Part shown: positions 61,882-64,000 of the stretch, piece by piece
How positions within the stretch are numbered: the first letter of the stretch is position 1
How the letters are laid out: each line of letters begins with the position of its first letter
From: a virus
IMG/VR virus record: IMGVR_UViG_3300030419_006839
Span: 1-64,000 of that record
Length of the DNA stretch: 64,000 bases
Reading direction: 5' to 3' (one strand)
Program-made: the position numbers and the translations under genes
The notes under the pieces: generated by a model
Told to the model about the DNA's origin: nothing
Seen by the model: the letters and a program-made list of their open reading frames with translations, nothing else
The model's database searches: none

Positions 61882-62762
61882 TATTTTTTACAGACCCTCA
61901 TTTAAGTGTTAAAAAACCATCTTGTAGGAAAGATGATTATCATAATACAATAAACAGTAAGTTAGACGAAATAATACAAGAGTCTAAACTTAGTGATTAT
62001 GTTATAAGTGCAGGGGATATTTTCGATAGATATAATCCAGTGATAAGGACAATGAATGTTTTTATGAATTTCATAGATAAACTTCATTGTCCTTTAGTTT
62101 TGTGTGCTGGAAATCATGATTTACAAGGAAATAATTATGAACAAATAGAGTCTACAGGTATAGGACATGTTTGTAGATTTTTCTCTGATAAAAAGGTGGT
62201 GTTGTTAAATATAGATAGAAAAAAATATAGTTTAAGTCATAATGTAGACATTTGGTTTAAAGAAACTGATCCTATTAAAAGTATGAAGTTTTTTAATGTA
62301 GAAAAAGAAAAGGCAATTAATTTTGGCATTATTCATGATATGGTTATAAATAATGAGTTTTTTGATAATTTTACCTTATTGGAAGATTTTGAAACTAATT
62401 TGGATTTATTGTTTAATGGTCATTACCATCCAGGGCATGAACATAGATACATTAATAAAACTCATTTTGTTAATACTGGAGCAATGTCTAGAATGTCTTT
62501 AGGTAAGTCAGATATTACGAGAAAACCTAAGTATGCAATTATAACTGTGAATGAGGAGGAAAAAAATATAGAAGTAGATTATAAGTCGTTTGCTTCATAT
62601 GAGAAAGATGTTTTTCACCAAGTAATTAAGTCTTCATATCAAGAGTTTTTTGATAACATAGAGGAAAAAGCAATAGATAATGATGTTATTTCTTTTATGT
62701 TTGATGAATCAAACAAACTTAGTGAATCAGCTAGAAATGTTTTAAGGGAAATATATGATTAA
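61872..62762 (+). CDS. sbcD: SbcD/Mre11-like exonuclease subunit
   Basis: A 296-residue calcineurin-like metallophosphoesterase. All five motifs are visible: TDPHL (Asp8, His10), SAGDIFDRYN (Asp49), AGNHDL (Asn81, His82, Asp83), GIIHD and NGHYHPGHEH (about 183-190). This is the Mre11/SbcD pattern of a Mn-dependent dsDNA exonuclease/ssDNA endonuclease that works with SbcC/Rad50 in phage DNA recombination and end processing. TTG 61872 is chosen as start since GAGG lies 5 bases before it; an earlier TTG at 61857 lacks a site. It is shorter than E. coli SbcD (about 400) and lacks most of the capping domain. Confidence 0.88.
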   Translation: MRIVFFTDPHLSVKKPSCRKDDYHNTINSKLDEIIQESKLSDYVISAGDIFDRYNPVIRTMNVFMNFIDKLHCPLVLCAGNHDLQGNNYEQIESTGIGHVCRFFSDKKVVLLNIDRKKYSLSHNVDIWFKETDPIKSMKFFNVEKEKAINFGIIHDMVINNEFFDNFTLLEDFETNLDLLFNGHYHPGHEHRYINKTHFVNTGAMSRMSLGKSDITRKPKYAIITVNEEEKNIEVDYKSFASYEKDVFHQVIKSSYQEFFDNIEEKAIDNDVISFMFDESNKLSESARNVLREIYD

Positions 62763-63045
62763 GAATTTAAAAGAAGTATTAGCTAAAGAATATCCATATG
62801 CGGTTTATTTAGATTCTTTTGATGATTGTTTTGTTGGTATTTTAGAAAAGCAAGGATCTCCACAAACCTCATGTTACAATAAGGAGAAAATGATAATCAG
62901 TATGATGAAAAAGATGAACTTAAGTTTTGAAGAGACTAATCTCTTTTTTGAAAAATTTATATTAACTCAAGGTGCTGGATTGATAACTCCTTCATTTATT
63001 CATTTTCCTGTTGAGATAGAAAAAGATATATCGAGGCATATTTAA
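62755..63045 (+). CDS. Conserved-looking small protein, unknown
   Basis: A 96-residue protein starting MIKNLKEVLAKEYPYAVYLD, continuing SFDDCFVGILEKQGSPQTSC and ending with a helical part and FIHFPVEIEKDISRHI. It overlaps the SbcD-like gene by 8 bases and has AAGGGA upstream. The opening looks like a small alpha/beta regulatory protein. Function unknown; the coupling suggests a link with the nuclease. Confidence 0.6.
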   Translation: MIKNLKEVLAKEYPYAVYLDSFDDCFVGILEKQGSPQTSCYNKEKMIISMMKKMNLSFEETNLFFEKFILTQGAGLITPSFIHFPVEIEKDISRHI

Positions 63046-63299: not shown

Positions 63300-63473
63300 T
63301 TGGAAATAACAATTAAAGTTACATGTTTTAATCCTGGTTGTGATGTTTTCATAACAACAACGTTAGAAGAATTTGATTCTACAACATGTAAGAACATAAT
63401 AAAACAATTATCTATAGAAGTAATGAACATTATGAACAACAGAGAGTTGGATAATAAAAAAGAGGAACAATGA
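63300..63473 (+). CDS. 57-residue protein with TTG start
   Basis: A short frame that starts at TTG 63300 with AAGGAG seven bases before it, reading (M)EITIKVTCFNPGCDVFITTT and ending in a charged helix (NNRELDNKKEEQ). It has CxxxxxC spacing (CFNPGC), too loose for a confident zinc finger. Its stop overlaps the start of the PQ-loop gene as ATGA, so the two are translationally coupled. Function unknown. Confidence 0.55.
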   Translation: MEITIKVTCFNPGCDVFITTTLEEFDSTTCKNIIKQLSIEVMNIMNNRELDNKKEEQ

Positions 63474-63736
63474 TAGCATATTTGTTAGGGTCTATGATGA
63501 TGTTTTGTTTTACCTTTTCTTTCTTACCTCAAATAGGTAAGATGATGATTGGTAGAACTAACAAAAATGTAAGTATATTTATGATTATGCTACAGGTTAT
63601 AGGCTATTTTTGTGGTGTTGTTTTTCTAAAAGTAGAGAGTGTTGATAATGTTTTATTGTTTTTAAACTACCATGCAGGTTTGTTTATATCTGTTATTACT
63701 GCATGTGCTTGGTTGTATTGCAATAAGGTTGAATAG
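63470..63736 (+). CDS. SemiSWEET-like PQ-loop membrane protein
   Basis: An 88-residue protein with three predicted transmembrane helices (about 3-24, 34-54, 60-82). Helix 1 ends with the PQ-loop signature FSFLPQIGKMM (Pro20, Gln21), followed by a basic loop (GRTNKNVS) and helix 2 starting VSIFMIMLQVIGYF. Length, three-helix layout, the PQ pair and the NxxVSxxM turn are those of bacterial SemiSWEETs, which dimerise to form a facilitative transporter, mostly for sugars. Substrate residues cannot be assigned by eye. Coupled (ATGA) to the preceding 57-residue gene. It would sit in the host inner membrane. Confidence 0.7.
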   Translation: MIAYLLGSMMMFCFTFSFLPQIGKMMIGRTNKNVSIFMIMLQVIGYFCGVVFLKVESVDNVLLFLNYHAGLFISVITACAWLYCNKVE

Positions 63737-63818: not shown

Positions 63819-64000
63819 TTGGAAACTTTTTTGTTATTAGGTTTTTTCATGTCTGCATACTCAGTTGTAGCTAATGATAGTATTCAGACTTTAGGTACTT
63901 TTATTTCGTCAAATAAGAATAAATCTTGGTATCAGTTGTGGATTTGGTTTGGTGGAATAATGATAGCAACAGCTACGATTGGATGGTTTCTAAATGGAGG
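63819..64000 (+). CDS. 5' part of a membrane protein, possibly phosphate-permease-like (right-truncated)
   Basis: The frame starts at TTG 63819, with AAGAGGTG eight bases upstream, and is open to the window end (60 codons). It reads (M)ETFLLLGFFMSAYSVVANDS, then IQTLGTFISSN, a basic loop and a second hydrophobic helix (WIWFGGIMIATATIGWFLNG). The ND-xxxxxGT-xxS arrangement after helix 1 recalls the GANDVANA-type signature of PiT inorganic phosphate transporters. With only 60 residues visible the family is uncertain; it is at least a polytopic membrane protein in line with the SemiSWEET-like gene. Confidence 0.5.
   Translation, partial: METFLLLGFFMSAYSVVANDSIQTLGTFISSNKNKSWYQLWIWFGGIMIATATIGWFLNG

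What the first reader, a model, noticed from the sequence alone, without database searches (positions are those of the whole stretch)
63470..63736. Phage-borne SemiSWEET-like transporter
An 88-residue, three-helix protein with the PQ-loop signature FLPQIGK and a following VS turn has the full layout of bacterial SemiSWEETs. Sugar-type facilitators are not a standard part of phage genomes. It could redirect carbon or other small solutes during infection, making it a new kind of auxiliary metabolic gene. It is coupled to a 57-residue unknown gene.
Basis: partly seen in the sequence, partly recalled or inferred. Interest (0 to 1): 0.65.

Follow-up and report, generated by a model that had tools for sequence, protein, structure and literature searches.

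The report
Phage PQ-loop half-transporter with altered pocket
A bacterial virus carries a small membrane transporter of the SemiSWEET kind that belongs to a viral branch in which the residues that grip sugars in known relatives are consistently replaced, so it probably moves a different small molecule into or out of the infected cell.

Summary
Window 63470-63736 (+) encodes an intact 88-residue, three-helix protein. Pfam PQ-loop matches above its curated cut-off (29.2 vs 22 bits, E 7.8e-7). An AlphaFold2 model built with 13 viral relatives (pLDDT 86) matches solved SemiSWEETs best (top 13 PDB hits, probability 0.96-1.00). The host record is a real tailed-phage genome of 104,851 bp.

The sugar reading is not supported. 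I found 22 viral contigs (18 distinct proteins) with the gene. They separate from 30 prokaryotic SemiSWEETs by one branch (94/96 support). In all 18 the pocket Trp of SemiSWEETs is Gly, Ala or Cys, and its Thr partner is Phe or Trp; the pocket Asn and the PQ hinge are kept. In the prokaryotic set Trp is kept in 29 of 30 and Thr/Ser in 29 of 30. Three groups of close viral homologues show purifying selection (dN/dS 0.03-0.17).

Best reading: a homodimeric PQ-loop facilitator with a rebuilt pocket and an unknown, probably non-sucrose substrate. Viral PQ-loop proteins are already named in databases (Geobacillus phage GR1; BFVD entries), so the kind is not new. The pocket-swapped branch appears undescribed in the literature I could search. 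The 57-residue partner gene is not conserved.

The parts
63470..63736 (+). PQ-loop half-transporter (88 aa), member of a viral SemiSWEET-like branch
   Evidence: Pfam PQ-loop 29.2 bits > 22; leave-one-out viral HMM 64.3 bits vs 28.9 for a prokaryotic SemiSWEET HMM; model matches SemiSWEET structures
63509..63511 (+). Phe14 codon: replaces the pocket Thr (Thr15 of E. coli SemiSWEET); Phe or Trp in all viral homologues
   Evidence: Alignment counts
63527..63532 (+). Pro20-Gln21 codons: the PQ hinge motif, invariant
63614..63616 (+). Gly49 codon: replaces the sugar-stacking Trp (Trp50 of E. coli SemiSWEET); Gly/Ala/Cys in all viral homologues
   Evidence: role of Trp50 from PMC4309421
63665..63667 (+). 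Asn66 codon: pocket Asn kept in all viral homologues
63300..63473 (+). 57-aa ORF (TTG start) of unknown function whose stop overlaps the PQ-loop ATG by four bases; no relatives found
63819..64000 (+). Start of a 307-aa multi-helix membrane protein that continues to record position 64742; 82-84% identical in two related phage contigs aligned over the full length
   Evidence: no Pfam, PHROG or PDB match

Best explanation
The gene encodes one half of a PQ-loop transporter. Two copies pair as a parallel homodimer (inferred from SemiSWEETs), giving six helices around a central path. The conserved Pro-Gln kink in helix 1 acts as the hinge of a binder-clip motion that opens the path to one side of the membrane at a time, so a small polar solute moves down its gradient without energy input (inferred). 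The hinge, the pocket Asn and the fold are kept (shown by sequence and model). The aromatic residue that stacks on sugar is moved from helix 2 (Trp to Gly) to helix 1 (Thr to Phe) (replacement shown by alignment; the three-dimensional swap is inferred). The substrate is therefore probably not the sucrose or glucose of known SemiSWEETs. A nucleoside, a short organic acid or another small polar metabolite useful during infection is more likely. The gene has been kept under purifying selection in several unlike phage groups, which argues for a working protein that benefits the phage.
For: PQ-loop family match above cut-off, and stronger in relatives: 53.7 and 48.4 bits. Best PDB fold matches are SemiSWEETs, query TM 0.69-0.82, 15-24% identity in the top 11. 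22 viral contigs carry it, the window included; pocket swap in 18 of 18 distinct viral proteins against 29/30 Trp and 29/30 Thr/Ser in prokaryotic ones. A single branch separates viral from prokaryotic sequences, 94/96, one change in 97% of bootstrap trees. dN/dS 0.03-0.17 in three groups of close homologues. No prokaryotic match above about 43 bits in 894 sampled genomes of three phyla, while viral members other than P0001 score 99-150 bits when left out of the model.
Against: No transport has been measured for any viral member. P0001 is the most divergent member (28-33% identity, long tree branch) and also lacks the Trp before the pocket Asn found in most relatives. Foldseek E-values are weak (0.03-0.2), as expected for 88 residues. 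The dimer was not modelled. The genomic setting differs from phage to phage, so no pathway points to a substrate.
Confidence: 0.62

Rival explanations
1. It is an ordinary sugar facilitator (true SemiSWEET) that moves mono- or disaccharides during infection.
For: Same fold and hinge, pocket Asn kept; the relative in L006 also passes the MtN3_slv cut-off (25.0 vs 23.7 bits); NCBIfam SemiSWEET_2 is the best subfamily match.
Against: The stacking Trp, whose change to Ala markedly lowers uptake in E. coli and L. biflexa SemiSWEETs (PMC5972207), is absent in every viral member, and Thr is replaced. SemiSWEET_2 scores only 25.4 and 33.3 against a cut-off of 80.
Confidence: 0.15
2. It carries nucleosides or nucleobases and feeds phage DNA synthesis.
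For: In one relative the gene starts one base after a dCMP deaminase gene; RNR genes lie within about 3 kb in L006 and L026, and an RNR-like ORF, identified by eye only, in L082/L083. In Geobacillus phage GR1 a PQ-loop gene overlaps a nucleoside 2-deoxyribosyltransferase gene and lies near an RNR gene. PnuC, the nicotinamide riboside carrier, has a SWEET-like fold (established knowledge).
Against: Nucleotide genes are common in large phages and no baseline was computed. In the window genome the neighbours are membrane and iron-sulphur genes. The GR1 protein lacks the viral-branch pocket residues.
Confidence: 0.15
3. It is a holin or another membrane protein that does not transport solutes (lysis, exclusion of other phages, membrane scaffolding).
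For: Size and three helices fit class I holins (general knowledge); all transport claims are by homology.
Against: PQ hinge, pocket Asn and several Gly/Tyr positions are invariant in 18 distinct proteins; the GH108 endolysin gene lies about 15 kb away; no holin family matched in Pfam or PHROGs.
Confidence: 0.08

Closest known systems
Bacterial SemiSWEETs (solved: E. coli 4X5M/4X5N, L. biflexa 4QNC, 4RNG, B. japonicum 9KAX)
   Same: Three-helix half-transporter, PQ hinge, pocket Asn, predicted fold (query TM 0.59-0.82)
   Different: Pocket Trp to Gly/Ala/Cys, Thr to Phe/Trp, Tyr-Gly to Tyr-Met/Leu; separate branch
Viral proteins named PQ-loop in databases (Geobacillus phage GR1 UDY80682.1; BFVD A0A6J7X7D0, A0A8S5P1N9 and giant-virus entries)
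   Same: Small PQ-loop proteins in viruses; fold probability 1.00 for the best BFVD entries
   Different: GR1 protein lacks the Asn and the Phe/Gly pocket signature; the BFVD entries were matched by fold only, their pockets were not examined
Mitochondrial pyruvate carrier subunits
   Same: Related three-helix fold, second-best group of PDB matches
   Different: No PQ motif (general knowledge), weaker matches (E 0.8 or more), eukaryotic heterodimer
PnuC vitamin B3 transporters
   Same: SWEET-like full-length fold (established knowledge)
   Different: Poor match: query TM 0.34, probability 0.11

Membership tests
PQ-loop family (Pfam PF04193) | Profile match above curated cut-off | tested here: met
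   29.2 bits vs 22
PQ-loop family (Pfam PF04193) | Pro-Gln motif in helix 1 of a three-helix unit | tested here: met
   P20-Q21; helices 2-28, 36-56, 61-87
SemiSWEET sugar transporter | NCBIfam SemiSWEET_2 subfamily cut-off | tested here: not met
   25.4 bits vs 80; the relative in L006 scores 33.3. No characterised SemiSWEET was run as a control for this cut-off
SemiSWEET sugar transporter | Fold of solved SemiSWEET protomers | tested here: met
   Top 13 PDB matches, query TM 0.59-0.82, probability 0.96-1.00, E 0.03-0.45
SemiSWEET sugar transporter | Pocket Trp in helix 2 (Trp48/Trp50) | tested here: not met
   Gly49 here; Gly/Ala/Cys in 18 of 18 viral proteins; Trp in 29/30 prokaryotic ones
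SemiSWEET sugar transporter | Pocket Asn in helix 3 (Asn64/Asn66) | tested here: met
   Asn66, 18 of 18 viral proteins
SemiSWEET sugar transporter | Pocket Thr in helix 1 (Thr13/Thr15) | tested here: not met
   Phe14 here; Phe/Trp in 18 of 18
SemiSWEET sugar transporter | Homodimer and sugar uptake | not testable with these tools
   No dimer prediction or assay available
Holin | Match to a holin family | tested here: not met
   No holin match in Pfam or PHROGs
Holin | Placement beside the endolysin gene | tested here: not met
   GH108 endolysin about 15 kb downstream; not all holins sit beside the endolysin

The most novel reading that the evidence does not exclude
A virus-specific branch of PQ-loop half-transporters, spread over several unlike groups of tailed phages, has swapped the pocket aromatic residue between two helices and gained a new substrate (for example nucleosides or an organic acid), making it a new class of phage-encoded solute carrier.
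Probability: 0.4. Interest if true: 0.68.

Novelty: new variant of a known kind. Interest (0 to 1): 0.48.

Why it matters
Few transporters are known in phage genomes, and this one is of the smallest type. A conserved, selected viral branch with a consistent two-residue pocket exchange gives a compact system for asking how PQ-loop proteins choose their substrate, and whether phages change solute flow in infected cells. It also warns against labelling such genes 'sugar transporter' in auxiliary-gene surveys.

Tried and rejected
Single-sequence scans of viral and genome collections with P0001 found nothing; they succeeded only with an alignment. DNA-level search of the region in phages: no match. 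The 57-aa ORF: no family match and no relatives. The idea that the downstream 307-aa protein is a PiT phosphate transporter (motifs resemble AND...GVPVSTT by eye) was tested against PHO4, E. coli PitA and PDB sequences: not supported. Terminase_6N in the viral records matched none, including the window genome, so it says nothing. Portal_T4 matched one record. Holin and PnuC readings rejected. Promoter scan no better than shuffles, and no terminator found. The first single-sequence model was weak (pLDDT 70.6) and was replaced by the aligned one.

Full report
What was checked. The ORF is real: 63470-63736, plus strand, ATG start, 88 residues, with a GAGG stretch just upstream and its ATG overlapping the stop of a 57-residue ORF. 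The window is the first 64 kb of a 104,851-bp virus record. The record carries portal, terminase pieces, major head, tape-measure, tail-fibre, DnaB-type helicase and DNA polymerase genes, so it is a tailed phage.

Family. Pfam PQ-loop matches at 29.2 bits against a cut-off of 22, E 7.8e-7. NCBIfam SemiSWEET_2 is the nearest subfamily, at 25.4 bits, far under its cut-off of 80. PDB sequence search gives only SemiSWEETs, at E 0.06-0.2. An AlphaFold2 model using 14 viral sequences has mean pLDDT 85.9 and pTM 0.72, helices 2-28, 36-56 and 61-87. Its first 13 PDB matches are all SemiSWEETs (probability 0.96-1.00, query TM 0.59-0.82, but E 0.03-0.45); mitochondrial pyruvate carrier subunits follow, and PnuC is poor. 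So 'PQ-loop half-transporter' is well supported.

Relatives. P0001 alone found nothing in viral or genome collections. Related phages found through the next gene and the portal carried PQ-loop genes at 53.7 and 48.4 bits. An alignment of these three then found 13 viral contigs and a further alignment 21, together with the window 22 contigs and 18 distinct proteins. Contigs reach 166 kb; one carries a T4-type portal (353 bits), and others show tail or RNR-like genes by eye next to the gene (not profile-tested).

A separate viral branch. A leave-one-out HMM of the viral set gives P0001 64.3 bits and the others 99-150, whereas a prokaryotic SemiSWEET HMM gives P0001 28.9. In 894 prokaryote genomes sampled from three phyla (398 + 296 + 200) no match exceeds about 43 bits. 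In a tree of 48 sequences, viral and prokaryotic sets are split by one branch, 94/96 support, one change in 97% of bootstrap trees. Limits: short sequences, P0001 on a long branch, prokaryotes sampled from few phyla, eukaryotic-virus sequences not included.

The pocket. In E. coli SemiSWEET the substrate site is formed by Trp50, Thr15 and Asn66, and Pro21-Gln22 is the hinge (PMC4309421); Trp or Asn to Ala markedly lowers uptake (PMC5972207). The equivalents here are Gly49, Phe14, Asn66 and Pro20-Gln21. Across 18 distinct viral proteins the Trp position is Gly 15, Ala 1, Cys 2; the Thr position is Phe 16, Trp 2; Asn, Pro and Gln are kept in all. In 30 prokaryotic proteins Trp is kept in 29, Thr/Ser in 29, Asn in 29. 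The prokaryotic set was picked by score against the viral HMM, which should favour, not hide, viral-like pockets. That the two changes exchange places in space is my inference; no coordinates of the model were available.

Selection. Pairwise dN/dS is 0.05-0.17 in the L020-L024 group, 0.03 for L025/L028 and 0.06 for L077/L078. P0001 itself has no close homologue, so selection on it was not measured.

Context. Downstream of P0001 lie a 307-aa membrane protein, a 4Fe-4S ferredoxin, a glutaredoxin, an IscA-like and a NifU-like protein. The 307-aa protein looked PiT-like to me by eye, but three tests did not support this. The 57-aa ORF has no relatives. In other phages the gene sits by a dCMP deaminase, near RNR genes or between a ClpP-like and a baseplate-like ORF (by eye). 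This variety suggests a free-standing function. The nucleotide-gene neighbours are a lead without a baseline.

Known before. Geobacillus phage GR1 carries an annotated PQ loop repeat protein, and BFVD holds PQ-loop proteins of uncultured phages and giant viruses. Searches of open-access papers for PQ-loop or SemiSWEET with phage, auxiliary metabolic gene or giant virus found no discussion in the returned titles and abstracts; two SemiSWEET surveys do not use the words virus, viral or phage in their main text. Subscription papers and preprints were not searched.

Verdict. A real PQ-loop half-transporter in a phage, member of an apparently virus-specific branch with a rebuilt pocket; sugar transport is neither shown nor the best guess.

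Noticed in passing
L002:1750-3617 (record positions about 64750-66617): Run of genes for a 4Fe-4S ferredoxin, a glutaredoxin, an IscA-like protein and a NifU-like protein; conserved in relative L005 (by reading the ORFs).
   Followed up: partly
L002:7394-8290 (record positions about 70394-71290): Phage-encoded flagellin-like protein with both Flagellin_N and Flagellin_C domains; a similar ORF (by eye) lies two genes after the PQ-loop gene in L018.
   Followed up: partly
window 63819-64000, continuing in L002:819-1742: 307-aa membrane protein, 82-84% identical in two related phage contigs over the full length, no known family; motifs resemble PiT phosphate transporters by eye but profile tests failed.
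   Followed up: yes
L003:18103-19191 (-): ORF beginning FDQDTEILTQDGFKSI, intein-like by eye, lying among split terminase pieces.
   Followed up: no
window 62755-63045 and L002:4597-4836: Two related-looking copies of a small protein of PHROG 13182 (first copy E 1e-11); a similar ORF is in L016:6894-7196.
   Followed up: no
L016:1892-3397: ORF that reads like a hybrid histidine kinase with response regulator (by eye), in a viral contig that shares the portal gene.
   Followed up: no
L016:4751-5083: SET-domain protein in a phage contig, close to the PQ-loop gene.
   Followed up: partly
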